Shown: positions 10,315 through 31,522 of the stretch, piece by piece
How the letters are laid out: the number at the start of each line of letters is the position of its first letter
Position numbering within the stretch: position 1 is the stretch's first letter
Virus record (IMG/VR): IMGVR_UViG_3300033144_001557
Location: 1 to 32,283 of that record
Length of the DNA: 32,283 nt
Source of the DNA: a virus
Strand: one strand, 5' to 3'
The notes under the pieces: generated by a model
The model's input: only the letters and a program-made list of their open reading frames with translations
Databases searched by the model: none
Told to the model about the DNA's origin: nothing
Made by a program: the position numbers and the translations under genes

Positions 10315-13300
10315 TGCCTAGTCTCTCAACCCAACCAAACAGGGCATACCCGAGTATCCCTAATGTCGATGACAGTATTGAGTCGCATACGTTCGCGATA
10401 CAGGCGATCAAAGATGCGCTAACAACACACGAGCGTCGCGACAATAACTTCCTAAAAAGTTTCATTCGGTTCGAGGAGCTAGTCGATCTTGGCATTATAG
10501 ATAATAGTGGCGACTTCATACTCAACCTGCCAAACAACCCTAGTAATCCCGGTAGCACTGGCACGCTTGGTGGGCTTACCGATGTAGATATTACCAACGT
10601 CCAGAACGACGACATAATCCAGTACAACACTATTACGAGCATGTGGGAGAACAGCCAGATAGTTCTCCCCTCTCACGGACATCCATGGGGTGACATCACT
10701 GGCGTACCCTCGTTCCTGCTTAACATCTCTGGCGAGTTACTGGGCGACCTCAGTAACGTAGAGATAGAAGCATTTCCGCAGGAGTTTGAGTTCCTTGTTT
10801 ACGACGAGCCAACTGCAACGTGGATCAATCAGACTGCAACCGAGCTGGGCATAAGCGACAACATCGGCGGAGAAGCTGAAGATGGTGACATGCTGTACTA
10901 CGATCTCAATGACGGGCTGTATTACCCGACTGAGGGTGCGCTTCACTGGGATGTAGACGGCCTGTTCTTACAGCTTTCAAATGATCTAGGAATTAACTGG
11001 CTCGACGAGGGGCAGGTGACTCGTGAAATGCTCCGACTTGGAACAGAGTCGATCGCTGTCCCTATTAGCCATCAAGAACTCACGCTTCTCACCGGAGCCT
11101 CGACCACCAGCACATCATATGTCGATGTTACTGGCGCGTTTATTGACCAGTCAATTCTTGTGGATAATGACGATTACTTGCTCCTTGTAATGTGTCATGG
11201 ATGGAACGACGCCGACCATACTGCCGAGACTAACGGCATTCGTATGGTCAATGAGAATGGAACGCTGCTCAGTGGTAGTGAGCAAATATACGAGTCTCTC
11301 AGTGGATCAAGTGACACCCAAGCGCTTCAGTATTTTTATGTGAACTGGCTTAACGCTGACATCGCCACTGGTACTACGAAGTGGCAGTTGCAGCATAAGA
11401 TGGCAGTAGGATCAGGCACCGACCACACTACCAGTGGCATCTTCATGCAAGCCATTAACATCAGCCAGATTCCGAATACGCAGAAATCTCGAACCGTCGC
11501 TACAACTATAATCGACGGCGAAAATTGGGTCACGATTCCAGCTTCCGTCACGCTACCCGCTGGTGACTGGCTAATCTTCTGTAGCGCACAGCACACATCT
11601 TTCAACGGCAACGCAAATCCTTATCTTGGGCTTAACGACGGCACAATGGATATTGGTCCGTTGTGTGCAAGAGACATCCCAAACAGTACGGGAAGATTTA
11701 GTTCAGGGTTCGTCCATCACGTATCGAACACAGTAACGAAGACCTATACTGCAATCGGTCAAACAGGATCGGCAGCTGGTGATGCAGATAATATATTCAC
11801 TTCACTGGTTGCTATTCGTCTGGAGGAGTTCTCAGAGTTTCATATCTCCCGCACCGCAGGCGACACCGTACCGGCTGACGGCAATGAGTTTGATCTGGAA
11901 ACACTGTCGTTTACCGCTGGCACGACAAGCACCGACTGGATGTTCCTCGGTGCGTACCAAGTAAACCCCGTAGGGAGTGGCCCATTCAGTGTGTCTGAAG
12001 TGCAAGTGAACATTGCCGGTATGGGCGATATGCTGGCTTCAGGAGATAAAACATACACCCCCAGAAGTGAAAGCAGCGCTCCCAAGACCGGATTCATGCA
12101 GATACCCGGCACTGTACAAACGATTTCGTCAGGCCAATCTATCGTCGCAGATTTGAGGTTCACCGGGGATGTAGGATTCCCGACAGACAGCATCCCTAAC
12201 AACTCTATGCTGGTTGCGTTCCCAATGTCTGTCGGCGTATCTGGCGCAACAGCTTTCAACGTCGGACACACTGGCTTTGAGACTAGGCTCCACGGCACGG
12301 TTGTTCGGATGGACAACAACATTGCGTTTGATTGGCTCGACCCGCTTGGGTTCAATCAGGAAATGCTTATCCTGACCGCAGGGGTGGCTGGCGATACTGA
12401 GGTCGAGCTGCTCGCGGATATGGAAGCCAGCGACGGTGCCACTTCCTACACTGAGCTTTCGAGCAATGCTGCGAATATGGCGTTCACCGCTAATGCGCAG
12501 ATTGATACTGCACAATTTAATTCTCATTCGTCTTCGCTACTGCTCGATGGTGTTGGCGATTTCGGCAGTTTCCCCGACATCGCTGCATACACTCTTGGCA
12601 CTCAAGCATGGACTATAGAAGGCTTTGTCAGGTTCAACTCCCTGCCGACTGTCGGTTTTACTTCTGATCCGGGCTACACCGTTGCTGCTATTTGGGGAGC
12701 GGCAGCGGCAGACCAGATGTTTAATTTCGAGATCATCCGTGACGGTTTTGGCACACGAGTAAAACTGACAGTTCGCGGCGGTAGTTCGGAACAAGGCACG
12801 ATCTCTGGAGGTATAAATCTTAATCAGTGGTACCACTGGGCAGTCGCCCGAGATGTGGGTGGTGACGGCAATATCCGTGCGTACTTCAATGGCATTTATG
12901 AAACATCTGATTTCGGAACTGCACCTACTGATATGGGCAATTCGACGGAGCCGCTTCGACTTGGTAGTAAGGACGGCACTGACAGATACTTGGACGGTTG
13001 GATCGACGATGTTCGGTTCACGATTGGTACCGCTCGATACATTGGGACTGGTAGCCAATCTATACCGTCAACACCCTTTTCTTTGCCCGCCGCTGAACCT
13101 GCAGTTTTCATCGTCGGCAACATCGACTTTGACACACATATTCTCGGCCCACTTACGCACATACAGTCCTTAGCAACGGACATCGACGGCACGTTGAATG
13201 TTGATGGTGCTACAACCATCCAGAACACGCTGGATGTTGAAGGCCCACTCACGATAGCGCCAGTAGTAACAGCTGAACCGATCCTTAAATGGGTAGACAG

Positions 13301-17259: not shown

Positions 17260-17529
17260 ATGAATCTTACCAAACCACAAGTCGAAGCAGCTATCGCTGC
17301 CGGACTCGCCGTTACCGACCCCGAGTCTGAGACTCTTATCGCCATGAAGTATGCACCGGGACTACTCGTCCTGCGTGGGCTACTTCAAGCTATCGGTAGC
17401 GGCCAGCTCGCACTGAAACAAGTAGAAGGCATGGCACCGGCTGAGCCGCCTCCGCCGACTCCTCCGAAGACTCCGAAGAAAGTCGCCAAGAAGAAAGCCA
17501 GCAAGAAGAAAGCCAGCAAGAAGAAATGA
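17260..17529 (+). CDS. Small protein with histone-like lysine tail
   Basis: This 89-residue protein starts at ATG 17260 with GGAGA at 17250-17254. An upstream TTG at 17248 sits on the ribosome site and is unlikely. Residues 1-62 are a compact helical part, MNLTKPQVEAAIAAGLAV and MKYAPGLLVLRGLLQAIGSG. Then comes a Pro-rich hinge (EPPPPTPPKTPKK) and a Lys/Ala/Ser tail made of KKKAS repeats. The tail resembles those of histone H1-like bacterial and phage proteins and would bind DNA or membranes electrostatically. It lies directly before the endolysin and shares the ATGA overlap with it. Its function is unknown. Confidence 0.65.
   Translation: MNLTKPQVEAAIAAGLAVTDPESETLIAMKYAPGLLVLRGLLQAIGSGQLALKQVEGMAPAEPPPPTPPKTPKKVAKKKASKKKASKKK
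17488..17526 (+). repeat. 15-base tandem repeat encoding the lysine tail
   Basis: The unit AAGAAGAAAGCCAGC occurs at 17488-17502 and 17503-17517, with a partial third copy (AAGAAGAAA) at 17518-17526. The unit length is a multiple of three, so copy-number change would lengthen or shorten the tail without breaking the frame. The repeat runs into the endolysin start codon. Confidence 0.8.
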
Positions 17530-18047
17530 TCGACGAACTCATAACAGAAGTTATGAAGGCAGAGGGGTGGGATACGTACACTGACCACCCCGCCGATCGC
17601 GGTGGCCCCACCAAGTGGGGCATTACCTTGAAAGCGTGGCAGGAATGGCGGGCGCACGATATAAGCGCTGACGACATAAAGGCCATCACCGAGTCCCAAG
17701 CTCGGGACTTCTATGAGAAGCTGTATGTCATCGGCCCGTCGTTCCATTTACTGCCCGAGCGTATTGTCCCGCTGGCGGTTGACTGCGGTGTTAATCACGG
17801 CACCGGGCGTGCATCCAAGTGGGTGCAGGAAGCAGTGGGCACCAAGCAGGACGGGGTTCTCGGCCCTATATCTCTGAAAGCGGTACAGGACAGCAACCAC
17901 ATAGCTACCTACCTCCAGATCGTGGCTACGAGGGTCAAATTCTACGGTCGGCTGGTGTCGAAAGACCATACCCAAGCGGTCTTCGCTTCTGGATGGAACA
18001 ATCGAGCCGCCAAGTTCCTCGTCACACTTGCTCAGAGCCTCAAATAG
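17526..18047 (+). CDS. Endolysin, GH108-type N-acetylmuramidase
   Basis: This 173-residue protein should cut the peptidoglycan sugar backbone at lysis. The N-terminal domain has EGW at 13-15, the place where the catalytic Glu of the family's EGG motif lies, followed by DHPADRGGPTKWGIT (20-34), the GH108 signature. The second half (ESQARDFYEKLYV, AVDCGVNHGTGRA, KWVQEAVGTKQDGVLGP) matches the peptidoglycan-binding domain (PG_binding_3) that normally follows. No signal peptide is visible, so it needs a holin for release; one is encoded 35 bases downstream. The start overlaps the lysine-tail gene (ATGA) and has no separate strong ribosome site. Change of the second Gly to Trp in EGG is a variation worth noting. 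Confidence 0.88.
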   Translation: MIDELITEVMKAEGWDTYTDHPADRGGPTKWGITLKAWQEWRAHDISADDIKAITESQARDFYEKLYVIGPSFHLLPERIVPLAVDCGVNHGTGRASKWVQEAVGTKQDGVLGPISLKAVQDSNHIATYLQIVATRVKFYGRLVSKDHTQAVFASGWNNRAAKFLVTLAQSLK

Positions 18048-18520: not shown

Positions 18521-18897
18521 TGCCAAGCGTTACCGAAACCGTAAGTTTATTCCTCGATAAAAATAGCAGGACACGGCTGGTGATAGTCGGATTTACAGTC
18601 GTAGCATTTTGGTTTTTCGCTGCATGGACAGTTGGGCTTGCTCCAGCGTTCGGCGCGGGCTTTGCATCGTCTGAAGATGTGAAGGGAATCAAAGTCCAGC
18701 TGCTCTCTGAATCTATTATCCAAGCTCGGATTCAATACTGCACCGCACCGAAAGGGAGTCGCATGAAAACTTTCTTCTCGACGCAGGTGAATGAGCTGAC
18801 TCGCGAATACCAAGATGCAACTGGAGCGGCGTACAGCCTTCCAGATTGTGATGAGCTAGTCTTTGTTGCAGAAGTTGCAGACAGTGACACAGCCTAA
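18520..18897 (+). CDS. Single-pass lysis-cassette protein, possible inner-membrane spanin
   Basis: This 125-residue protein starts at ATG 18520, seven bases after AAGGAG (18507-18512) and overlapping the holin stop. Residues 20-43 are a hydrophobic membrane segment (LVIVGFTVVAFWFFAAWTVG) after a short N-terminus. The rest would lie in the periplasm: helical DVKGIKVQLLSESIIQAR, then RMKTFFSTQVNELTREYQDATG, with Cys at 74 and 110. The N-in single-pass topology with a periplasmic helix directly after lysin and holin fits an i-spanin (Rz-like). No lipoprotein partner (o-spanin) is seen in frame, so this is a tentative call. It could also be an unrelated membrane accessory protein. Confidence 0.65.
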   Translation: MPSVTETVSLFLDKNSRTRLVIVGFTVVAFWFFAAWTVGLAPAFGAGFASSEDVKGIKVQLLSESIIQARIQYCTAPKGSRMKTFFSTQVNELTREYQDATGAAYSLPDCDELVFVAEVADSDTA

Positions 18898-19432
18898 GGT
18901 AAAAAAATATTACGGTTTCGTACCGTCGCAAGAAGGCCAGATTACTTTTGGCCTTGAGCGTCTTGCTGAAATCGAGGATGAGATTCGTGTACTGCACGAG
19001 GAGCATTACCTTGAGACAGAAACCACCTACTTGCCGACCCCATTCAGTCCGTCGTATGACAGATACAAAGCGTCTGAGGAGATCGGCCAGTATGTGCAGT
19101 TCACAGCTAGAGTAGGCGATAAGCTGGTTGGTTACTTGCAGTACTATGTCTTTGACGACATGCACACGAATATCAAACAGGCTCGTGAAGATGCTCTGTT
19201 TGTGAGTAAGAAGTTTCGAGGCCAGAAGCTCGGCCCCGGTATGTTGTCCTACGCTGAAGATGCCTTAAGGCAACTCGGCTGCAGGATGATCGGGATGACG
19301 AGCAAGCACCCTATCGGTGCGCCGGACTTGGGGCCGTTTTTAGAGAGTCAGGGCTACAAACCAGTAGCCGTGTTCTATACGAAGGAATTGGAGAGCGAAG
19401 ATGTGTTGCAGCAGCCCACCACCGCCGCCTGA
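18884..19432 (+). CDS. GNAT-family N-acetyltransferase
   Basis: This 182-residue protein is read from GTG 18884, which overlaps the previous gene by 14 bases. Upstream TTG codons at 18863 and 18866 are possible but lie deeper in the neighbour. The core has beta strands VQFTARVGDKLVGYLQYYVF and then ALFVSKKFRGQKLGPGML, whose QKLGPG fits the acetyl-CoA pyrophosphate-binding motif A (Q/RxxGxG/A) of GNAT enzymes. A helix (LSYAEDALRQLGC) and the strand RMIGMTSK follow. The C-terminal part, FLESQGYKPVAVFYTKEL, is a typical GNAT end. The substrate is unknown: in a late operon it might acetylate a virion or host protein. Placement between lysis and internal-virion genes is unusual for metabolism. Confidence 0.82.
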   Translation: MTQPKVKKYYGFVPSQEGQITFGLERLAEIEDEIRVLHEEHYLETETTYLPTPFSPSYDRYKASEEIGQYVQFTARVGDKLVGYLQYYVFDDMHTNIKQAREDALFVSKKFRGQKLGPGMLSYAEDALRQLGCRMIGMTSKHPIGAPDLGPFLESQGYKPVAVFYTKELESEDVLQQPTTAA

Positions 19433-20486
19433 CTTAAGCGGTATGTCTGATGCTTCTATCGAAGTAGCAGAGATGGCGCGTCAAACAGGCCAAGAGCAGC
19501 TTGAGTGGGCGCGTGAGCAAGACACTATGAATCGTGCGACACTGGACGAAGTACTCTCTGTTCAGCTTCCTGCCATGCGTGACCAGTTTGAGAATGCTCG
19601 CGCTGACCGTTCGCGCTGGGAAGATGTCTTCAAGCCGATGGAAGACGAGTTCGCACAGTACGCTAAAGACTTCGATACACCGGAGCGGCGTGCAGATGAA
19701 CGCGCTAAAGCCATTTCAGATGTCAGCACTCAGTTTGATGCTTCTCGCCGTAATGCGTTACAGCGTCTTGAAGGCTACGGTGTTGACCCGAGCCAAACTC
19801 GTAACAGCGCTATGGACATTGGTGTACGCACTGCTCAAGCAGCAGCACAAGCCGGTGCCGGTTCCGCTTCTGACAAATATATTGAAACCAGAGGCGAACA
19901 GTTACGCGGTCAGGCTATCCAACTTGGTCGAGGAGTTGTTGGTGGTGTCGGCGGGCAGTACGCCGGAGCTGTGGGTGCTGGCGGTGCTGCTGTAGGTGGC
20001 GCTAACCAGACGACAGGTACCAGTTCGGGAGCTATTAACGCAACACAGGGTTGGGGCCAGCAAGCACTTGGTGGATACAACCAAGGCTCGAACATTATGA
20101 CGCAGGGTTATAATAACGAGATGGCAGGTTACAACGCCCAGAATGCTCAGACAGCTGGGATGCTGCAAGGCATCGGGAGCATCGCTGGTGCAGCCATGGC
20201 TATTAAGCATGGCGGGTACATGGACCCAAGATACGCACACGGTGGTCAAGCCATTGACCCGGATTCAAATGTGATCGAGGGAGAGTTCACTGATGTTACC
20301 GGCGATGTAGAAGGTCCGGGCGGTCCCATGGATGATGAAATCCCTGCCATGCTGTCTAATGGTGAGTACGTGATTCCCGCTGACGTTGTTCGTGCGAAAG
20401 GGGAAGAATTTTTCGATCGGTTGCTTGAGCAGTACCATGACGGTCCTTCTCCTGACAGCCTTAAGATCGAAAGGTTGGCGGCGTAA
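19401..20486 (+). CDS. Internal virion protein (small), DNA ejection
   Basis: This 361-residue protein starts at ATG 19401, overlapping the acetyltransferase by 32 bases. The N-terminus MCCSSPPPPPDLSGMS is of the Cys/Pro type common to phage internal virion proteins. Residues 20-110 are helical (EMARQTGQEQLEWAREQ, MRDQFENARADRSRW). Residues 140-260 are Ala/Gly/Gln-rich and low in complexity, with small-residue helices that could insert in membranes. The C-terminal part has KHGGYMDPRYAHGGQ (near 270), the Tyr-Ala-x-Gly-Gly-type motif, and IPAMLSNGEYVIPADVV (near 314), a recurring segment in phage ejection and tape-measure-like proteins. Its role would be to form part of the trans-envelope channel after adsorption. 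The next gene starts in its stop (TAATG). Confidence 0.75.
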   Translation: MCCSSPPPPPDLSGMSDASIEVAEMARQTGQEQLEWAREQDTMNRATLDEVLSVQLPAMRDQFENARADRSRWEDVFKPMEDEFAQYAKDFDTPERRADERAKAISDVSTQFDASRRNALQRLEGYGVDPSQTRNSAMDIGVRTAQAAAQAGAGSASDKYIETRGEQLRGQAIQLGRGVVGGVGGQYAGAVGAGGAAVGGANQTTGTSSGAINATQGWGQQALGGYNQGSNIMTQGYNNEMAGYNAQNAQTAGMLQGIGSIAGAAMAIKHGGYMDPRYAHGGQAIDPDSNVIEGEFTDVTGDVEGPGGPMDDEIPAMLSNGEYVIPADVVRAKGEEFFDRLLEQYHDGPSPDSLKIERLAA

Positions 20487-22615
20487 TGGGTAGCTTTAAT
20501 CTCGGCGCATTTACGAGTGGGTTTCAGGACAGCTACCAAGCTGTTCGCAAGAACCAACGTAGTAAGCTGATTGACAAAGCGCTCACGCATGAAATCGCCA
20601 GTATGGGCGAGAAGCGGAAAGCTCGTGAAGCTGGATACGAACGCTTCGGGGAAGATTACGCCAGCGACGAACAGTTCTTGCCTCAGTCTTGGGGATCGAA
20701 AACTTTAGGCTGGTTGGGCAAGAAGCTCGGTATGGGTCAGGGTGCCAGTAACACAGCTATATCACCGAGTGAAATGGGTCCACCTGCGCCTGCAATGGAA
20801 CTGAACGAAGCACAAGATTTTTCAAACAGAGCCTATGAAGGCGAGCAAGCATCTGGCATGGCTGGTCTGAACCAGATGCCTACGATGGCAGCTCGTCATG
20901 GCGGCGCGATTGAGCGCTATGCAGATGGTGGTTCTGTTCGTCACTTGGTTAAGAAGTATGCGAGTGGCGGTCGAGCCACAGCGCTTTATTCAGGTGTGAA
21001 AGGATTTGCAAACGGCGGGCGTTCGCTTGCGCCTAACCGCACGATAGGCCATTACGAGCAAGGCGGCATGGCGATCAGGCCAGCAGGTTACGCTGATGGT
21101 GGTGTGCTTCAGTATTCAGGTGTAGCAGGTGAAGGTGGTCCGAGAGCTAATGTACCGAGGCCAGTTGGCATGTTCGCTGATGGTGGTCGTGCATACACAG
21201 ATGAAGAACGGATGGAGCGCTCCTACGGCGACTACTACCTTACGGAAGAAGAAGCAGCTGAGCGTGTTGTTGGCAAAGGTGCTGGCATGAGCGGTGCAAC
21301 AGAACCTCGCGGTTCCCCCGGTGTACAGCGTCAAGCTCTCTATGACGACAACACAGGTGGTGGGCCACGAGAGGCGCTTCGTGACGTAGGCCGTGCAACT
21401 TCAGAGTATTTTGACGACACCGTTAAAGGTGCGCTCGGCGGGCAAAAACTGATCGACGACGCTGATGCAAAACTGGACAAAGCGAAGGGCGCGAAAGAAG
21501 TAGGTCGTGCCACTCGCGAAACCGGAACAGCTGCACTTACCGCCGCCGCTGAAACAACGCTGGGGCTACTAAAAGATGTAATGCTTGACAACCCGATCAC
21601 ACAGGGTGTCATGGGCTTCTTTAGTGGTGAGGAGAACGAAGCCGCACCGCGTGATGAAAAAGTTGCTGCAGTACAAGCTCTCGATCCAGACGAGGATGTT
21701 TCTGCACAGCCCGGCCCTCCTGTTGCTGGCCCCGGCCAAGTTGCTGCCGCCGCTCCGTCAACAGTTGCAGAGGCGATAGCAGCAGAACAAGACCCGATCA
21801 TTGATATGTCAAAGGTGCGTCAGATTCGTCCCGAAGACATGCCCAACAAAGGCCAGAAGGAATGGGAAGACGAGCGTAACTTCTACGCTGCTCAAGCTAT
21901 TGCTCATGGGGAAAATCCACTCGATGCAATGAAAGCGGTTGACGAGAAACAGTTGCGCGGCTTCACCATGTACGGCCAGCAAGCTGCGAATCTTCTGATG
22001 GCCGGTGATGCAGACTCCGCTGCGAAAGCGCTCTACGCTGCTTACCAGTACTTCCCCAACGGCACCAATGTAAGGTTCGGTGTTATGAAGGGCAAGGACG
22101 GTCAGCCTGTTGTTATTGGGATGGGCACGAACGAAGAAACAGGTAAGCCGGAAGGTGAGCCGATGGTTATGACCGCCGAATCAATCAATGTTCAAGTCGA
22201 GAACATGCAGAAGCCCGGAGCGCATCGAGCATGGACGAAAGATTGGCGCGACACTGAGCAAGCTATTCGTGAATGGATGGAAGTTGGTAAGCCAGCTGCG
22301 CAGAGCAAAGCGATCTATGAAGATAGAATGGGTAGAGCTGCGCTTCTGAGGTCACAAGCGCTACTGACTACAGCGCGTTCTAATCCGCACGGGCTGAAGA
22401 AGTCTGATTACGACCGTGCGTTTGGTGAGTTCATCGACTCACAAGACCTTCGTTCTTTGGAGGACGAGCCTCTTGCCCAAAACCTCGCAAGTCTCATGTC
22501 GCAAATGTATCTTCGGAATCCGAACACACCGTACCCGACTATTATTGACGAGGTTATGCAAGCTCTTAACTCAAATGAGCTTAGGGCATTGCAAGAAAAA
22601 TACGGGCTACTCTAA
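20486..22615 (+). CDS. Internal virion protein (middle) with YAxGG repeats
   Basis: This 709-residue protein is the second ejection-type protein. Residues 1-60 are helical and basic. Residues about 137-235 carry seven Gly-Gly motifs in 100 residues: RHGG, RYADGG, KYASGG, GFANGG, HYEQGG, GYADGG and MFADGG. An Asp/Glu-rich helix with YLTEEEAAERV follows. The middle (about 290-400) is Ala-rich with a weakly hydrophobic helix; residues 410-440 are Pro/Ala/Val. The C-terminal half is a folded-looking helical domain, NPLDAMKAVDEKQLRGFTMYGQQ, AKALYAAYQYFPNGTNVRFGV and later DRMGRAALLRSQALL. No enzyme motif is seen. Its position and companions suggest a scaffold of the ejection channel. Confidence 0.72.
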   Translation: MGSFNLGAFTSGFQDSYQAVRKNQRSKLIDKALTHEIASMGEKRKAREAGYERFGEDYASDEQFLPQSWGSKTLGWLGKKLGMGQGASNTAISPSEMGPPAPAMELNEAQDFSNRAYEGEQASGMAGLNQMPTMAARHGGAIERYADGGSVRHLVKKYASGGRATALYSGVKGFANGGRSLAPNRTIGHYEQGGMAIRPAGYADGGVLQYSGVAGEGGPRANVPRPVGMFADGGRAYTDEERMERSYGDYYLTEEEAAERVVGKGAGMSGATEPRGSPGVQRQALYDDNTGGGPREALRDVGRATSEYFDDTVKGALGGQKLIDDADAKLDKAKGAKEVGRATRETGTAALTAAAETTLGLLKDVMLDNPITQGVMGFFSGEENEAAPRDEKVAAVQALDPDEDVSAQPGPPVAGPGQVAAAAPSTVAEAIAAEQDPIIDMSKVRQIRPEDMPNKGQKEWEDERNFYAAQAIAHGENPLDAMKAVDEKQLRGFTMYGQQAANLLMAGDADSAAKALYAAYQYFPNGTNVRFGVMKGKDGQPVVIGMGTNEETGKPEGEPMVMTAESINVQVENMQKPGAHRAWTKDWRDTEQAIREWMEVGKPAAQSKAIYEDRMGRAALLRSQALLTTARSNPHGLKKSDYDRAFGEFIDSQDLRSLEDEPLAQNLASLMSQMYLRNPNTPYPTIIDEVMQALNSNELRALQEKYGLL

Positions 22616-25600
22616 ATGGCCTCGTTCCGCGCCCAATACGAGGAGCTGTTTGGCCCCATCGACGATTATGACCCGATAGACATAACCGCGCCTGATGAAG
22701 AAGCTACACAGCTTCGTGCCGATCGAATCCAAGAGGAAGTTCCTGACACAAGTGACGGGATCATTCCGTATCGGCCTCTCGACAGAAAAGCCATTGACCC
22801 TGATCAGGGTATCGCTGGCAACATCGCTGACCTTACAAAGACTGGCACCGCCATGCTTGGCGAAGCTGTTCTTGGTGTGGGCGAATACGCTGCCCGGCAA
22901 GTTGATCGCACAGTATTCGGCGGTGACATTGCTAAAGGTGTAGCAACCGGCCTCGAAAGCGCACGCGGGGAACTCGCTGCTTACCGCCAGAGCGTCTACG
23001 ACATGATGCCCGAAGAAGCTATCGCCTTGAAGGGCGCTGAGTTTCTTACGCTCGATCCCGACAAAACTATTTGGAAAGGAAGCCCGCTCGATGTAGGCGA
23101 GGCGATCCTCTATAAGTTCTGGGAGTCTGTTCCCATGATGGCTGCGACGATTATTCCCGGCGCAGTTATGATGAGAGCAGGCGCATCAGCGAAAGCCTTA
23201 ACATATCTCGGTGCATCTGAAGGTGGGCTGTCAGTTGGATTCATCGCCAACGACATTACCGATGGCATACAGGAGATGGACGATGAAACGCTCGCACAAG
23301 AATCGCCCCGTTTCGCTGAACTCCTGCGAACCATGGATTCACCGGAAGCCGCACGGGATCAACTCATTGCAGAAGCACAAGGACTCGCCCCTATTATCGG
23401 CGGTGTTCTTGTCGGTGCAGTTGCGCACACCGCTGGTCGCTACCTCGAACCCATCATCACAGGCAAAACCGCCACAGGCGCGGCAACTGGATTCGGAGCA
23501 GGACAGCGAGCATTGCGTGGCGCTGTCTCAGAAGGCATAGCACAAGAAGGCCCGCAGGAATCAATAGAAACCATTGCCCAGAACATTGCCGCTGCTGTAT
23601 ACGACGGTGATCGTGCCACTCTTGAAGGCGTAGCCGAGGCGTACATTCAAGGCGCAGTTGTTGGCGCACCGGGCGGCGCAATCGTCGGTGCCGTTGGTGG
23701 CACTACGGGAGAAGTCCCGCCAGAAGAAGACACGCCGGAAGGACGCGATCGACCGGGCGCTCCATCCAGCTTCAGAGATGTGTTTGGAGAGCAGGTACCA
23801 CCACCGGGTGGATATACTGGTGCGCAGCCAGAGCAAGGTGACTTGTTTGGGGATGACCCTGATCTGCTAGATGAGGCACCTCTGGATGGATGGGAAGATG
23901 CTCGCGAGCTGCAGGAAGGCGCGAGAATGACGCGTGCCGATCGAATCCGTGCGGAAGTAATCGGTCGCAAGAAAAAAGGCAAGAAGAAGCGCGAGAAAGC
24001 TAAGGCTACCCGGTTAGCTGGCGTATTGAATGAGGAGCTGGTTGATCCTGCTCTCGCTGCTGCTGTCTCTGCAAGCATTCGTGAAGATGATGTCATGGGC
24101 GACATGATCGACAACATCGCATCGCAAGACCCTGCTGTTACTGGACAGGAAGGCAACCTCGGTGGCCGGATGCAAGGTGATCTTGACCTACGTGGTGGAG
24201 CGATGACCCCACCATCACCACCGCCCGGCACTGATTTCGTTATGGAAGGCAGAGATGCAGTCGGACGGCCAATCCGAACTACTCCAGCCCAGCCTTTCGA
24301 GGAAGTGATGCCAGAAGTGCCGGGTCCACAACAGCCGCCACCCGGTGCGCCACCCGGTGGTGCTGCGTTCCCAACTGGACAACAAGGTGAGTTATTTGAC
24401 ACACCTCAAGGTGTCGCGCCTGAGCCTGCACCGGGAGCAGCGCCGCCTGTAGGACTCACACAGGAACAACGTGGAGCTACCCCTGTCGATGGGTGGGTCG
24501 TAACGATGACAGACGAGAGCGGAGCTGTCATTGAGGAAGACATTTTCGCAACCGCAGAGGAGGCCGAGGTAGTAGCCGACCAGTGGCACGACGATCTACC
24601 TGATGCATTCATAAATGTTACGCGATCAAAAGGGGCACGCACAGGGACCGCAGCTGCGGGAGCGCCACTTAGCGCGGAAGGCATTGCGGATCAGCCGACA
24701 GCCGAACCGCTGGCTGATATACAAGCGCAGCTTGAGGATATGGCGCACGAAGGGACGACTCGGGAGGCTGTGTTCCTCTCAGCTGCGAATGTAGCTCGCA
24801 TCCAACGTGACAATCTTGCCGACCAGATACCCGAAGTAGGTATTGCCATACCTAATTTCGATGGTCAGGGCGGGATGCTTATTGCTCGCGACGAGGAAGT
24901 TGCACAAGGCGCTTTCGAGATGCTTGAGCTTGGTATGCCTATGCAGACAGTACTGGGTCAGCTCACTCGTGCCGGTGCCGGTAAGCCGATGGGTGACACC
25001 GTTGTACAGATACGTGACGAGGCTGGCCGGGTCGTTCGTGAGACGCTCGTAGCAAGCGAAGACGAAGCGTTCGCAATGGCCGAGGAGATAGGGGACAGCG
25101 CTGTGGTATTGACCAGCGCCCAAGCGCTCAAGAGGCGTGAGACTCTTATAGCCGCCGAGCAAGCCGAGGTCGAGCTTGCCCGCGAAGGTAGGCGTCAGCA
25201 AGAGATCATTCGTGAGCAGCTTCCCATGGATGAACGCGGCCCGGTAGAGAAAGTTGCGGGCGAAGGCAAGCGTAAGACTCGCACCCGTGCTGCTGCTGCA
25301 ACACTGGGCGTAGGAGCTAAGAGAGCTGACGTTGAAAAGGCGAAAGCGATTGGCGGTTTCTTCCCACCTGACACGTTGGAGTTTGCAAATGACCAACAGG
25401 AACAGGACTACCGCGAGGCGTTCGACCGGCTCGTGGACAACCAGATTGCTCAAGAGCTTGCCGGAACATACCCAATCGACCGCAAGTCCAAACTCAAGGC
25501 GGAAGAAAAGAAGCTATTCGAGCAAATTGGAAAGCTCCGTCAAGTCTCGAAGCCGAAGCGGAAGGTAACACGTGTTCTGAAGACAGCTGCGAAGATAGAT

Positions 25601-28600
25601 CGGCCTACGGTAGCTGCAGCACAGAAAGACTTGTCGATTGAGCCGCTGGAAACCGACCAGCCCGGCAAGGATTACTTTGTCGGCCAACCAGTAACGCGTC
25701 GTTCACGTGAGGAGATAGATGCGCTTTCACCACTGAAGCGATCGTCTGTACAGCTACAAGAAGCATTCGGTGAAGCTGCCTACTGGCTGGCCGGGCAGTT
25801 CAGAAAGATCGAGATTGTACCCGAGTATTTCGGAGTCGAGATAGCGGAAGGAGTTCGTGAGGGGCTTGACACACGTTCTGTAACAGAGCGCGAAATATCC
25901 GGCTCTGATGATGTCTTGACCACGGGTGCTGAAGCAGAGATCGACCCGCTGCTAGAGAGAGGTGAGAGGCGGAAGCGTACAAGCAAGGATTCACGTGAAA
26001 CATCGGAAGCTAACGACGCAGCCGAATCGCTGCAAGAGATACTTGAGATAGAGTCTGTAGCGGAGCTTAAGAAGATTCTTGAGCAAGGTGATCCGCTCAA
26101 GTTCATTGCCGATCAGTATGCTTTACCCGGCCAGCAGAAGAAGCTGATTCGCCGCGTCAATAATTACATCACTCGCCGCGAGCATGGCGGTAAGTCAGCT
26201 GCTCGTGAGTTGGGCAAGCCCGGAAAAAGGACTGGCCGTAAACAGGGTTCATCCACGGCTGCATTTGATACAGGTGTTCTAACGCAGCAAACTCTCCCTC
26301 AAGATGAGTCAATAGCGGATAAACTGAAGCGCGAGCAACGATCGCAGCAAGCGAAGAAAGAACTTCAGTCAACTGTCAACGCAGCGACCAAGCTGGTTGA
26401 TCGTCTGGAAAATCCAAACAGCGCCTACAGCAAGCTGATAGGTGAGCGCGATATTGACGGCAACCTGACTGAGAAGGGCCAGTCGATGCTGGTAGCCATG
26501 CATTACTTTATCGCACTCAATGATTTTGCATTGTCGCTTTTGCAGTCGGGGCAGAACACTTCTAATTCGAGCAAGGTTATGGAGCAGCTGAGTAAGCATC
26601 TCCGTAAGTTGATTAAGTTCAAGCCTGAAACATTTGCAACGCATGTGTCAGAGATTGCAAGGGCAGATGAGAGAGCATCACTGAAAACCATAGCTGATCC
26701 AGCTACACGTGCTAGGGGTCTGGACCCTACTGTGCGCGAAGCTACCATGCAGAAAAGCAACAAGGCGCTGCTGGCACTTGTAGCCTCTAGGTTACGTTTA
26801 CATAGCCGCTGGCAGGATAATTTCCTATACAAAAATAACATCGCTGCGCTGATGAATAAGTTCACTGGCGCGATAGCAGCTCGGGGATTCGACTATGACT
26901 CTGTTCAGGTCTGGAGCGCGTATGCGCCGACCGAAGCGGAGCTGACACACCTGCAGTATGCGATGAACGGATGGCGGAAAGACCCCGAGCTTAAGAAAAC
27001 TTTCTACAACCCTATGAAGCAGTTCTTCAGTGGTGTCGGCGTTACTTTCGACAGGCGTGGCGATGTTGTAATACCTCTTGCAGAAGGTGGCTTGAGATAC
27101 ATCGGTAAAAAAGAAATTGGGGTTGGGTACGGCTCTGTCACCGTCAAAGAGGACCGAGTAACTGAGGGCGGTAAGTATGAGTGGAGGCCATCGGATAAAG
27201 CCCTTGACGCAGAGTTGGAGTTCAAGAGCAGGGGAGGGACTAACGCTTCTGGCAGAGGGCAGACTACTAAAGAATACAACGCGGAAAATGCACCTGATCC
27301 GATCACTGGCATGTCTGAGCTACAGAGGAAAAGAGAAGTAACTGCACGGAAAAAGGACGAGTCTATAGACGCCGAGCAAGCTGATGTGCTTAACGGTGCA
27401 AACAAAGCGATCAATGCGTTACTCAGGATCGTAAGCAACAAGAAATCTACGATTCAAAAACTCGTGAAAGCAGAGCAGGCATTCATTAGGAAGATGAAAG
27501 CCTTGGGCGTGTGGGCAGACACCAGCTCTCCAATGATTGGTAGGATATTAGTAGGTACTGTGAAGCGGTACCATAAGATCGGACTGCGCCTGTTGCAGAA
27601 GAAAATCTCGAAGCAGGAAGCACGCTCGATCATGGGTAAGATCAAACCTTTCCCGATACCGAAGGGCTTGGAGCAGAAGAAGTTCTCTATCTCTGAAGCA
27701 GAGAGTGAGCTTGATCTGCTGCACGCAATGGTTGACCCCGAAATCAATGCACCTGAGTTGCTGCAAACTGCACAGGCGCTAGGCGTTAAGCTAAGCCGTC
27801 GTGACATTGCGCCGAGCATGAGCGCGATGCTACGTACCATGCTTGAGACGTTGCCGCAGGATCATGTATATCGAGCGCTTGCTGAGAAGCTGTTGGCGCT
27901 GGACATAAACGATGTTGGCGTACAGTGGGATTGGGATGGCAAGCTGCTCAACAAGAAGACGATGGGCCGTTTCAGAATACGTCAAGAAACTGGGCGTCAG
28001 ATTTATTTGAACAAGGGCCAGCTCCAGCGTGAACGTGATCTTGGCGGCGATATGTCTGCCAGCGTCGTGCATACCATGCTGCATGAGATGGTTCACGCCG
28101 CGACTCACCGCGCTATACGGAAGAACGCTGGCTTACGTAACACCATGCTCCAGATGCGTCAGTACACGATTGATCACTGGATTGGAGACTTACGTATACC
28201 CTACGGCCTGCAAGATGTCACCAATAAAAATGGCGATCAGATAGCTGACGAGTTTGTAGCAGAGGCGTTCTCAAATCCTGAGTTCCAAAATCAGCTAAAG
28301 CAAATCTTCCTCGACGGTCGTTCGATGTGGCAAAGGTTCAAGGACATGGTTCGTAACGTCCTTAACCTGCCTCCCAATACGCCAACCTCGGTGTTGGATG
28401 TGATCATGTCGCTTGAGTCACAACTGTTCGAGGGGTCAAACCTCCAGATAGGCGCTGAAGAAGCCGTCGATCTGAATATGGATATGTCTTTGCGCCCAGC
28501 TGTGTCAAAAATTCTTGACTCGCTTGGGCAGGGTGTCGGTAGCATGAAGTCGATTTGGGATGGAATCAGTCCCCCACTCATTGCGATGACACAAGAGCAG

Positions 28601-31522
28601 ATTCGCGACACGTATCAGCAGTACTTCGGTGGCTCAACAGGCCCGATGCGGAAATACATGGACGCGTTCTTTGCACGCAACGCAGAGAACACCCGGCTTA
28701 TGGCTGATGCCGAAAAGATCACTCGCAAATGGACAGCGTTGGACGAGAAGCACGACCCTGCGTTCGGCGTCGAGATGTCTAGGATAGCTACTGACACCAC
28801 CTTGCAAGGTGTGTCTATGGCACCGATAACGCACAAGCGCAACGAGCATGTCAAGTCACCGAGGAAGAAGGCTAAACATGCAGCGTTATACAGCCGGTTC
28901 AAGAAGCTGCCGCAGGAATACCAGACGCTCTACAACGAACTGCAAGCATATTACCAGTCAACGCTTGAAAATGAGGTTGATCTGCTGACTCATAATGCGT
29001 TGCGTGGTCTGCTTCAGAAAGAGATGACCGTTAAGGAGTTCGAGGCAAAGTATTCAGTTGAAAAACTGAGAGCATTCGACACGCCTGAGAAGTTTAAGGC
29101 TGAGTTCAAGAAGTATCTTGACGACGACATGCTTGGAACTCTTAACCAGATGACACACGTGCGGCAACAGCGGTTGGGCGATTACTTCCCAATCAAGCGG
29201 TACGGGGATTACATTGTGTATGCAGAGAAAGAGATCGGACGCAAAGTGTTCTCCGACTCTAAGAAAGCATACGCGTATGCAGCAGAGCGGCGGCTCGAAG
29301 ATATAACTTGGGATGTAAGTGTTCTGGCGCAGGAGGATGGGACGTTCAGGGTTAAGATTCTGGATAAGGACTTCCGTATAGCTGAGACGAAAACAAAGGC
29401 CGAGGAAAATCGTCTCGACATGATTGAGAAGCATGGCGCGAACGCTAAAATAACTCCGGTTCAGTTGAAGTCAACCAACTCACAAGAGTCGGTGATCACC
29501 TCCAACTCGCAGTTGAACTCGATCATTACATCATTGGATGGCAACCCAGCTGCACAGGCGGCGATTAAAAACTTCTACCTTGAGTCGTTGTCGGATGCGT
29601 CGTTCCGTAAGCACGAAATGAAACGTAAGAATCGTGCTGGTGCGGCGACTGACATTCAACTCCGTAACTTTACCGTCTATGCGAAGCAGTCCTCGTACTA
29701 CTCAGCGCAGTTGAAGTTCGGCAGCAAGATGGCTGAAGGTTTAGCCGAGATGCAGACGTTCATCAAGCAGAGGACGGACGAGAGCGAGATTACTTCCGTT
29801 CGTTTGGGACAGGTGCATAGAGAGTTGGTCAAGCGCGATGAAATGACCGTGGACATCAACGAGATTGCGAAGTTTGCGAAGAAGTCGGTGGAGATCACGC
29901 AGTTTATGATGCTCACCTCGCCGTCTTACTGGATGATCAACGCGTCGCAGCCGTGGATGGTTACGCTGCCATGGCTGACCTCGAAGTACGGCCTCGCGAA
30001 TTCCCTCTCTGCCATGAAGGATGCACAGAAGCTCATTGCTCCTGATCTCATCCATGCATCGGCTGAAACAAAGGGTGGCTTGTCAGCGCTGTTCTCTAAG
30101 GCTAAGGCCGAGAAAGCCTTCAACGTCTTGGACGATGTGTTAGTAGGTATCAAGAAACGCGACCCAGCGAACTACAAGCAGTACAAAGAGATGCTTGACG
30201 AGCTGAAGCAGCAGGGTGTCATCGACCTGTCGTGGATCGCTGAACTACGTGACATAAGTGAGGGGATTGATACCGGGAAGTGGCAGAAGACTCTGGACGC
30301 CTCCCGCGTGATGGCTCATCTGACCGAGGTGAATAACCGTATTCTCACAGCCTTGGCAACGTATGAGTTGGCGAAGAAGGACGCACTCGGTAAGAGCAGC
30401 ATCGACGCCGCGACTGCACACAAGGTAGGCATCAAGATGGCGAAGCTCGCTGTCTCGCAGACGCAGTTCAATTACTCCTCGCCCAACAAGCCTCGCCTGT
30501 TCCAATCTGGCGGTCCTTTAGGGGCTGGTGGGCCGATGGTGTTCCAGTTCATGCAATGGCCGCAGCATATGTACGCTCTGATGATCCAGAACTTCAGCCT
30601 GATGGCCGGACCTGACCCTGTACGGCGCAAAGAGGCGCGTAAGCTACTCGCGGGCCTGTTTGCCACTCACCTCGCGGCTGGCGGCATCTTAGGCGCTGCG
30701 CTGCAACCTGTGAAATGGGCGTTCGGTATGCTCGCGATGGTCTTTGGCGACGAGGGCGAGGACACACTCAAGGGAGCTATCTCGGGCGAGACGTTTGACC
30801 GAGGAACCATGAAGCTCTTGACAGACATGTTTGGTAGCGAGATCGCACTGATACTTAGTAAGGGCCTGCCAACGATTGTAGGCGGCGACCTCTCTCAACG
30901 CATGTCACTAGGTACCGTGTACTACCTGAACTTCAGGGGCAACAACGCCGAGTCTGCTCTGGGATCGCTCGCCTTAGGTCTGGGCGGTGCGTCGGTCAAC
31001 CTTGCCGCGAACTTTGGTAGAGGTGTTGAGCATTTCTTCGATGGAAACTACCGCCGAGCTATCGAGTCTGCCAGCCCGAAAATCCTGCGTGACGTTGTAC
31101 GCACGACGCGGTATTGGGACGAAGGTTTAGTGAACCGGGCTGGTGACACAGTTATACCAAGCGAAGGCTTATCGGCTTGGGATTTGGCGCTGCAATCCAT
31201 GGGCGTGCAGCCTGTCGTAGTCAGTAGGTTCTACGCGGGGCAGTCAGCGATCAAAGACAAAGAGATTTTCTTCCGCGACAAGAAGTCCGACATACTCAGG
31301 GACTTCCGAGCAGCTGTAGGGAATCCATCAATGATGGCACGTGTGATGCGTAACGTCGCAGAGTTCAACCGCAACAATCCTGCCATTGCGATCAGGCGGT
31401 CTGCATTAGTATCGTCTGCGAAAAGTAAGTACGAGCGTGAGGCAAGGTATCGTCGGTACGGCGCGAACATCGACGAGAAAGCGGCAACGCAGTTTGCGGA
31501 AGAAGCTGACCCGTATCGTTAG
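22616..31522 (+). CDS. Giant polyvalent internal virion protein with zincin domain
   Basis: This is one continuous frame of 2968 residues starting directly after the previous stop (TAA-ATG). The N-terminal 60-370 region has weak hydrophobic helices (MMAATIIPGAVMM near 172; APIIGGVLVGAVAHT near 258) and the segment SEGIAQEGPQESIETI (near 305), common at the start of phage ejection proteins. Residues about 370-660 are Pro/Gly-rich linker. Around 1823-1827 is HEMVH, with DEFVAEAF at 1878-1885, the HExxH...E pattern of a zinc metallopeptidase (zincin). Near 2431 is LTSPSYWMINASQPWMVTLP and near 2619 NYSSPNKPRLFQ. Residues about 2640-2860 look like the LPD38-type region of 'polyvalent' phage proteins, with hydrophobic helices. 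It likely travels in the capsid and enters the host with DNA. Confidence 0.85.
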   Translation: MASFRAQYEELFGPIDDYDPIDITAPDEEATQLRADRIQEEVPDTSDGIIPYRPLDRKAIDPDQGIAGNIADLTKTGTAMLGEAVLGVGEYAARQVDRTVFGGDIAKGVATGLESARGELAAYRQSVYDMMPEEAIALKGAEFLTLDPDKTIWKGSPLDVGEAILYKFWESVPMMAATIIPGAVMMRAGASAKALTYLGASEGGLSVGFIANDITDGIQEMDDETLAQESPRFAELLRTMDSPEAARDQLIAEAQGLAPIIGGVLVGAVAHTAGRYLEPIITGKTATGAATGFGAGQRALRGAVSEGIAQEGPQESIETIAQNIAAAVYDGDRATLEGVAEAYIQGAVVGAPGGAIVGAVGGTTGEVPPEEDTPEGRDRPGAPSSFRDVFGEQVPPPGGYTGAQPEQGDLFGDDPDLLDEAPLDGWEDARELQEGARMTRADRIRAEVIGRKKKGKKKREKAKATRLAGVLNEELVDPALAAAVSASIREDDVMGDMIDNIASQDPAVTGQEGNLGGRMQGDLDLRGGAMTPPSPPPGTDFVMEGRDAVGRPIRTTPAQPFEEVMPEVPGPQQPPPGAPPGGAAFPTGQQGELFDTPQGVAPEPAPGAAPPVGLTQEQRGATPVDGWVVTMTDESGAVIEEDIFATAEEAEVVADQWHDDLPDAFINVTRSKGARTGTAAAGAPLSAEGIADQPTAEPLADIQAQLEDMAHEGTTREAVFLSAANVARIQRDNLADQIPEVGIAIPNFDGQGGMLIARDEEVAQGAFEMLELGMPMQTVLGQLTRAGAGKPMGDTVVQIRDEAGRVVRETLVASEDEAFAMAEEIGDSAVVLTSAQALKRRETLIAAEQAEVELAREGRRQQEIIREQLPMDERGPVEKVAGEGKRKTRTRAAAATLGVGAKRADVEKAKAIGGFFPPDTLEFANDQQEQDYREAFDRLVDNQIAQELAGTYPIDRKSKLKAEEKKLFEQIGKLRQVSKPKRKVTRVLKTAAKIDRPTVAAAQKDLSIEPLETDQPGKDYFVGQPVTRRSREEIDALSPLKRSSVQLQEAFGEAAYWLAGQFRKIEIVPEYFGVEIAEGVREGLDTRSVTEREISGSDDVLTTGAEAEIDPLLERGERRKRTSKDSRETSEANDAAESLQEILEIESVAELKKILEQGDPLKFIADQYALPGQQKKLIRRVNNYITRREHGGKSAARELGKPGKRTGRKQGSSTAAFDTGVLTQQTLPQDESIADKLKREQRSQQAKKELQSTVNAATKLVDRLENPNSAYSKLIGERDIDGNLTEKGQSMLVAMHYFIALNDFALSLLQSGQNTSNSSKVMEQLSKHLRKLIKFKPETFATHVSEIARADERASLKTIADPATRARGLDPTVREATMQKSNKALLALVASRLRLHSRWQDNFLYKNNIAALMNKFTGAIAARGFDYDSVQVWSAYAPTEAELTHLQYAMNGWRKDPELKKTFYNPMKQFFSGVGVTFDRRGDVVIPLAEGGLRYIGKKEIGVGYGSVTVKEDRVTEGGKYEWRPSDKALDAELEFKSRGGTNASGRGQTTKEYNAENAPDPITGMSELQRKREVTARKKDESIDAEQADVLNGANKAINALLRIVSNKKSTIQKLVKAEQAFIRKMKALGVWADTSSPMIGRILVGTVKRYHKIGLRLLQKKISKQEARSIMGKIKPFPIPKGLEQKKFSISEAESELDLLHAMVDPEINAPELLQTAQALGVKLSRRDIAPSMSAMLRTMLETLPQDHVYRALAEKLLALDINDVGVQWDWDGKLLNKKTMGRFRIRQETGRQIYLNKGQLQRERDLGGDMSASVVHTMLHEMVHAATHRAIRKNAGLRNTMLQMRQYTIDHWIGDLRIPYGLQDVTNKNGDQIADEFVAEAFSNPEFQNQLKQIFLDGRSMWQRFKDMVRNVLNLPPNTPTSVLDVIMSLESQLFEGSNLQIGAEEAVDLNMDMSLRPAVSKILDSLGQGVGSMKSIWDGISPPLIAMTQEQIRDTYQQYFGGSTGPMRKYMDAFFARNAENTRLMADAEKITRKWTALDEKHDPAFGVEMSRIATDTTLQGVSMAPITHKRNEHVKSPRKKAKHAALYSRFKKLPQEYQTLYNELQAYYQSTLENEVDLLTHNALRGLLQKEMTVKEFEAKYSVEKLRAFDTPEKFKAEFKKYLDDDMLGTLNQMTHVRQQRLGDYFPIKRYGDYIVYAEKEIGRKVFSDSKKAYAYAAERRLEDITWDVSVLAQEDGTFRVKILDKDFRIAETKTKAEENRLDMIEKHGANAKITPVQLKSTNSQESVITSNSQLNSIITSLDGNPAAQAAIKNFYLESLSDASFRKHEMKRKNRAGAATDIQLRNFTVYAKQSSYYSAQLKFGSKMAEGLAEMQTFIKQRTDESEITSVRLGQVHRELVKRDEMTVDINEIAKFAKKSVEITQFMMLTSPSYWMINASQPWMVTLPWLTSKYGLANSLSAMKDAQKLIAPDLIHASAETKGGLSALFSKAKAEKAFNVLDDVLVGIKKRDPANYKQYKEMLDELKQQGVIDLSWIAELRDISEGIDTGKWQKTLDASRVMAHLTEVNNRILTALATYELAKKDALGKSSIDAATAHKVGIKMAKLAVSQTQFNYSSPNKPRLFQSGGPLGAGGPMVFQFMQWPQHMYALMIQNFSLMAGPDPVRRKEARKLLAGLFATHLAAGGILGAALQPVKWAFGMLAMVFGDEGEDTLKGAISGETFDRGTMKLLTDMFGSEIALILSKGLPTIVGGDLSQRMSLGTVYYLNFRGNNAESALGSLALGLGGASVNLAANFGRGVEHFFDGNYRRAIESASPKILRDVVRTTRYWDEGLVNRAGDTVIPSEGLSAWDLALQSMGVQPVVVSRFYAGQSAIKDKEIFFRDKKSDILRDFRAAVGNPSMMARVMRNVAEFNRNNPAIAIRRSALVSSAKSKYEREARYRRYGANIDEKAATQFAEEADPYR

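What the first reader, a model, noticed from the sequence alone, without database searches (positions are those of the whole stretch)
22616..31522. 2968-residue ejection-type protein with an embedded HExxH metallopeptidase motif
Seen: a single open frame with HEMVH (1823-1827), DEFVAEAF (1878-1885), N-terminal weak membrane helices and a C-terminal hydrophobic region. Known: giant 'polyvalent' phage proteins carry zincin and LPD-type domains and enter the cell with DNA. Inferred: this protein may cut a host or phage target, or the cell wall, during entry. Long middle parts (about 700-1780 and 1900-2430) match nothing I recognise and may hide other effector domains.
Basis: partly seen in the sequence, partly recalled or inferred. 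Interest (0 to 1): 0.65.

Follow-up and report, generated by a model that had tools for sequence, protein, structure and literature searches.

The report
Phage ejection protein with built-in peptidase
This giant phage protein is very probably packed in the virus head and injected into the bacterium. It shares its front end and an embedded zinc-peptidase domain with the giant injected RNA polymerase of phage N4, but it carries a different, unknown payload where N4 has the polymerase.

Summary
Window 22616-31522 is one 2968-aa frame. HEMVH (1823-1827) and DEFVAEAF (1878-1885) belong to a real zincin domain. H1823, E1824, H1827, E1879 and E1883 are invariant in 59 relatives whose mean column identity is 21%, and a confident AlphaFold2 model gives the zincin topology. 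The same domain occurs in solved podophage ejection proteins, among them PhiM1 gp48 (8vb2), and in the C1 domain of the N4 virion RNA polymerase gp50. These keep HExxH and the E1879 position but not E1883, so E1879 is the likely third zinc ligand. New here: the N-terminal domain (60-365) is homologous to the gp50 N-terminal domain, and N4's polymerase is absent. I read the protein as an N4-gp50-type ejection protein with other cargo: N-terminal domain, cargo including an unknown module at 694-849, zincin, helical C-terminal module. Seven of eight divergent DarB-like giants also have HExxH or HExxxH just before that module, while their cargo varies. This favours a peptidase that releases cargo from its own chain after ejection over a host-targeting effector. 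Activity, substrate and virion location are untested. New variant of a known kind (polyvalent proteins, Iyer 2017).

The parts
22616..31522 (+). Giant ejection-type polyvalent protein, 2968 aa
   Evidence: Single open frame; C-terminal half matches PHROG 10089 'DarB-like' E 1.5e-61
22793..23710 (+). N-terminal domain, residues 60-365, homologous to the N4 gp50 (vRNAP) N-terminal domain
   Evidence: Profile A8 matches N4 vRNAP PDB chains at residues 293-445, E 2.5e-10 over the whole PDB; hhalign 97.3%, E 1.8e-11; close-relatives-only profile matches N4-like vRNAPs at E 1e-7 to 5e-6, reversed profile finds none
23711..24694 (+). Proline/glycine/alanine-rich linker, residues 366-693
   Evidence: Composition; poorly conserved among close relatives; only its last part (640-693) was modelled, pLDDT about 30
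24695..25162 (+). D2: conserved alpha/beta module of unknown function, residues 694-849, starting at PTAEP
   Evidence: 45-49% identity among four relatives; 18 loci in IMG/VR; small separate ORFs in L103 and L105; AlphaFold2 confident; no Pfam match
26108..27115 (+). Helical middle region, residues 1165-1500, found only in close relatives
   Evidence: Profile search and model
27833..28450 (+). Zincin metallopeptidase domain, residues about 1740-1945
   Evidence: A3 profile against PDB: 9sfn_G E 2.6e-19, 8vb2_A E 3.7e-13, 23sg_S E 4.4e-10; SprT-like Pfam E 4.9e-5; model; N4 gp50 C1 domain 97.2%, E 4.3e-11
28082..28096 (+). HEMVH, residues 1823-1827: two predicted Zn-ligand histidines and catalytic Glu1824
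   Evidence: Invariant in 59 of 59; on helix 79-102 of the model
28247..28270 (+). DEFVAEAF, residues 1878-1885; E1879 is the predicted third Zn ligand
   Evidence: E1879 and E1883 invariant in 59 of 59; only the E1879 position is kept in 9sfn_G, 8vb2_A, 23sg_S and N4 gp50
28568..31519 (+). Helical C-terminal module, residues 1985-2968, shared with DarB-like giant proteins; includes LPD39 (2007-2130)
   Evidence: Pfam LPD39 E 3.4e-8; PHROG 10089; phage relatives; model pLDDT 82, pTM 0.73
20486..22615 (+). 709-aa protein directly upstream; possible gp15-type member of an ejection cassette (by position only)
   Evidence: Homologue in the same place in 8 close relatives; no detectable N4 gp51 homology
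19401..20486 (+). 361-aa virion structural protein, possible third member of the cassette (by position only)
   Evidence: PHROG 8003 virion structural protein E 1.1e-61; homologue in 15 relatives; no N4 gp52 homology

Best explanation
The protein is a giant ejection protein built on the same chassis as phage N4 gp50, with the RNA polymerase replaced. It is packaged in the head, threaded out through the tail ahead of or with the DNA, and its N-terminal domain lodges in the cell envelope. The rest reaches the cytoplasm and refolds. The zincin, sitting between variable cargo and the constant helical C-terminal module, then cuts its own chain at exposed linkers (candidates 366-693, 850-1165, 1500-1740), which frees the cargo, including module D2. 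Shown: domain homologies, invariant zincin residues, zincin fold in a confident model, fixed position of the peptidase, virion-gene context. Inferred: packaging and ejection (from N4 gp50, PhiM1 gp48 and P1 DarB), membrane insertion (from N4), catalytic activity, self-cleavage, timing and cargo function.
For: Zincin homology to virion ejection proteins: 9sfn_G E 2.6e-19, PhiM1 tetrameric ejection protein 8vb2_A E 3.7e-13, 23sg_S E 4.4e-10, N4 gp50 C1 (control 111). NTD homology to N4 gp50. N4 gp50 is reported as packaged (4 +/- 1 copies) and ejected, with an NTD that enters lipid nanodiscs and with HExxH in C1 (PMC12633501). Five invariant residues. Peptidase slot: 6 of 8 DarB-like giants have HExxH 194-366 aa before the C-terminal module (chance 1e-12 under composition shuffles, rows treated as independent although related) and a seventh has HExxxH, although cargo differs: SLT, InPase, methylase-helicase. 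P1 DdrB, also with an MPTase, is proteolytically processed, and self-processing was proposed for the class (PMC5512222). Late-gene context.
Against: Recombinant N4 gp50, with an intact HExxH (HELVH at 2228), was purified without evidence of degradation, and N4 gp50 is packaged unprocessed, so any self-cleavage must be triggered. No cleavage site is known. The C-terminal module shows no detectable homology to N4 C2. One relative (L010) lacks HExxH in the slot. Most relatives carry no Pfam-recognisable cargo. Zinc-site geometry was not measured: no coordinates were available.
Confidence: 0.45

Rival explanations
1. Ejection protein as above, but the zincin is an effector that cleaves a host protein (for example a defence or regulatory protein) after entry.
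For: The nearest non-phage relatives by profile are metallopeptidases that act on host proteins (lethal factor entries E about 1e-5; Pfam Tox-MPTase4 in 10 and ATLF in 16 of 59 members). Iyer 2017 also allows this.
Against: The domain keeps one fixed place next to the C-terminal module while cargo is swapped; an effector would be expected to vary in place and presence like other cargo.
Confidence: 0.22
2. Ejection protein in which the zincin domain is mainly structural (part of the core or ejectosome), with little or no peptidase activity.
For: In PhiM1 gp48 the equivalent region is an ordered part of the core inside the capsid; N4 gp50 stays intact when purified; one relative lacks the motif.
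Against: All catalytic residues are invariant in 59 divergent sequences, and HExxH recurs in the slot in sequences too diverged for the profile to detect.
Confidence: 0.2
3. The zincin helps cut the cell wall during entry, as the first reader suggested and as the PhiM1 authors proposed for the overlapping 'endolysin/exotransglycosidase-like' region.
For: PhiM1 gp48 residues 268-528 were called endolysin-like; relatives L003, L004, L005 and L100 carry wall hydrolases elsewhere in the same polypeptide.
Against: Those wall enzymes are separate domains near the N-terminus of the same chain, which leaves the zincin another task. The window has its own endolysin gene (17526-18047), though that serves lysis. 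In the N4 model the corresponding domain ends up in the cytoplasm.
Confidence: 0.08

Closest known systems
Phage N4 virion RNA polymerase gp50 (and Schitoviridae relatives)
   Same: Homologous N-terminal domain and homologous zincin C1 with HExxH and third Glu; order NTD, cargo, zincin, large helical C-terminal part; giant size
   Different: No RNA polymerase; different cargo (D2, helical middle); C-terminal module not detectably homologous to N4 C2; N4 zincin lacks the E1883 equivalent
Polyvalent proteins of phages (Iyer 2017, PMC5512222)
   Same: Giant multidomain protein in late genes with MPTase and an LPD domain
   Different: Only one recognisable enzyme domain; homology to the N4 gp50 N-terminal domain was not reported there (its searches with that region recovered only related phages and prophages)
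DarB-like giant proteins (PHROG 10089; phages PEp14, LASTA, POI1126)
   Same: C-terminal module; N-terminal domain in L005, L006 and L010; HExxH or HExxxH in the same slot
   Different: Carry methylase, helicase, SLT or InPase cargo that is absent here
PhiM1 tetrameric ejection protein gp48 (8vb2), 9sfn_G internal virion protein, 23sg_S gp10
   Same: Same zincin domain by profile
   Different: About 1240-1340 aa; no shared N-terminal or C-terminal module detected by sequence

Membership tests
Zincin metallopeptidase | HExxH motif conserved across relatives | tested here: met
   59 of 59 aligned relatives, including nine found through another domain
Zincin metallopeptidase | Third ligand Glu on a downstream helix | tested here: met
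   E1879 invariant and kept in solved homologues, on helix 144-152 of the model; metal geometry not measured
Zincin metallopeptidase | Helix, three strands, HExxH helix, ligand helix | tested here: met
   Model H19-27, E34-38, E50-55, E59-65, H79-102, H144-152; best fold match 2ejq_A Z 6.4, rmsd 2.9, 83 aligned
Zincin metallopeptidase | Zinc-dependent proteolysis | not testable with these tools
   Needs biochemistry
Phage polyvalent proteins (Iyer 2017) | MPTase and LPD domains in a giant chain encoded among virion genes | tested here: met
   Zincin, LPD39, portal/head/internal virion neighbours
Phage polyvalent proteins (Iyer 2017) | Several disparate enzymatic domains | tested here: inconclusive
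   Only the zincin is recognisable; D2 unassigned
N4 gp50 (vRNAP) family | N-terminal ejection/membrane domain | tested here: met
   membrane function itself not tested
N4 gp50 (vRNAP) family | T7-like RNA polymerase domain | tested here: not met
   N4 RNAP profile finds no match in P0001 or in the relatives
N4 gp50 (vRNAP) family | C2 helical domain | tested here: inconclusive
   hhalign aligns the zincin only; helical C-terminal module of similar size
Podophage ejection protein | Present in virion and delivered to the cell | not testable with these tools
   Inferred from homologues and gene order

The most novel reading that the evidence does not exclude
N4 gp50, DarB-like giants and T7-gp16-sized ejection proteins share one delivery system: an envelope-anchoring N-terminal domain, interchangeable cargo, and a peptidase that releases the cargo after ejection. 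In this view the N4 virion RNA polymerase is one cargo variant of a widespread injected-protein chassis, and the domain called endolysin-like in PhiM1 gp48 is a metallopeptidase.
Probability: 0.33. Interest if true: 0.75.

Novelty: new variant of a known kind. Interest (0 to 1): 0.5.

Why it matters
It links three groups that are usually treated apart: N4 virion RNA polymerases, DarB-like polyvalent proteins and podophage ejectosome proteins. It makes an open question directly testable: why giant ejected proteins carry a zincin, and whether they cut themselves after entry. It also suggests reading the PhiM1 gp48 'endolysin-like' region as a zincin.

Tried and rejected
Full-protein and single-region scans of IMG/VR with P0001 alone found nothing; an alignment was needed. 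Foldseek with both large models gave no significant match; VIA-align gave only middling Z (best 6.4 for the zincin; nothing specific for D2 or the helical middle), so the absence of a fold match for these parts is not evidence of a new fold. D2 has no relative in bacterial species genomes or in cultured phages at the sensitivity used. The zincin part is not found in plasmids by tblastn. The 709-aa and 361-aa neighbours are not detectable homologues of N4 gp51 and gp52. A repeated linker motif as a cleavage-site candidate was looked for: PTAEP occurs once, at the D2 border. LPD38 membership as suggested was not found by Pfam.

Full report
Observation. The window (an IMG/VR contig of 32,283 bases) has one 2968-aa frame at 22616-31522. 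HExxH alone would arise in 2.4% of shuffles of this protein, so conservation was tested.

Relatives. tblastn in phages found 29 records, all under 60% identity, mainly to the C-terminal half. The best, Rhizobium phage RHph_TM27A, includes the zincin and has an acyltransferase gene, a homologue of the 361-aa gene and one further large gene upstream of the giant. An alignment of the two opened IMG/VR: 341 relatives, 80 kept, of which three are close (39-43%). A second module, D2 (694-849), brought 18 loci, most of them new, independent of the zincin motif.

Zincin. In 59 sequences H1823, E1824, H1827, E1879 and E1883 are invariant at 21% mean column identity. Scanning the PDB with this profile gave three virion proteins (9sfn_G, 8vb2_A = PhiM1 gp48, 23sg_S), then lethal factor entries and the N4 virion RNA polymerase. 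The virion proteins keep HExxH and the E1879 position but have W, Q or G at the E1883 position, so E1879 is the likely third ligand. AlphaFold2 of 1735-2934 is confident (pLDDT 82.3, pTM 0.73) and shows helix, three strands, the HExxH helix and the Glu helix. Best fold match: 2ejq_A, Z 6.4.

N4 gp50. Profile comparison aligns the zincin with the C1 domain of the N4 gp50 family (97.2%, E 4.3e-11; from the longer profile 96.5%). The middle region as a control gives 0.35%. The N-terminal domain (60-365) matches N4 gp50 residues 293-445 at E 2.5e-10 over the whole PDB and by hhalign 97.3%. A profile from close relatives only still finds N4-like polymerases (E 1e-7 to 5e-6), and the reversed profile finds none. 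No N4 polymerase domain is present in this protein or its relatives. The N4 paper describes gp50 as NTD (enters nanodiscs), RNAP, C1 with HExxH, and helical C2. The window protein has the same order without the polymerase. Homology of the C-terminal modules could not be shown.

The peptidase slot. The C-terminal module is shared with DarB-like giants carrying other cargo: SLT, InPase, methylase and helicase. In six of eight of these an HExxH lies 194-366 aa before the module. Composition shuffles put the chance of at least six at 1e-12, but the rows are related, so this is only indicative. L008 has HExxxH there, a variant described by Iyer 2017, and L010 has a JAMM/RadC-like HNHPSGGPLSPYD stretch instead. 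The fixed place next to variable cargo is the main argument for self-processing over a host effector.

Context. Upstream lie a 709-aa gene and a 361-aa virion structural gene, both conserved in place. Three genes ending in the giant one is the layout of ejection cassettes (DEV gp73-gp72-gp71), although gp51/gp52 homology was not detected.

D2 and the middle. D2 is confidently modelled but has no Pfam match. Small separate ORFs carry it near terminase genes in L103 and L105. The helical middle (1165-1500) is limited to close relatives. What these do is unknown; they are the cargo candidates.

Literature. The class and the self-processing idea are Iyer 2017. The PhiM1 paper calls gp48 268-528 endolysin-like; a term search found no metallo-, protease, HExxH or lethal factor in its main text. 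P1 DarB is packaged in the head. I know of no report of the N4 gp50 N-terminal domain in proteins without polymerase, but only open-access papers were searched.

Noticed in passing
L103:9740-10468 and L105:7332-7874: D2 occurs as a small separate ORF within a few kilobases of the terminase large subunit gene in other phages, suggesting it works as an independent unit.
   Followed up: partly
L010 (phage PBC5), about 200 aa upstream of the C-terminal module: A JAMM/RadC-like motif HNHPSGGPLSPYD stands where other relatives have HExxH: possibly a different metallo-hydrolase in the same slot.
   Followed up: no
PDB 8vb2 chain A (PhiM1 gp48) residues 382-513: The region overlapping the published endolysin-like domain matches the zincin profile with HEAAH and a downstream Glu; possible re-annotation.
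   Followed up: partly
window 10314-16238: 1974-aa protein with a Laminin_G_3 (concanavalin A-like) domain at residues 759-902, otherwise unassigned; perhaps an adhesion protein.
   Followed up: no
window 18863-19432: GNAT-type acetyltransferase gene just upstream of the putative ejection cassette, also found there in several relatives.
   Followed up: no
L002 (RHph_TM27A) giant protein residues 860-994; L100 residues 179-282: Relatives carry an InPase domain or an SLT transglycosylase upstream of the zincin, consistent with swapped cargo.
   Followed up: partly
window 22616-31522, P0001 residues about 640-672, 788-830 and 2240-2275: Short strand-strand-helix stretches of similar look recur (for example VVQIRDEAGRVVRETLVASEDEA and FRVKILDKDFRIAETKTKAEENR); not tested for significance.
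   Followed up: no
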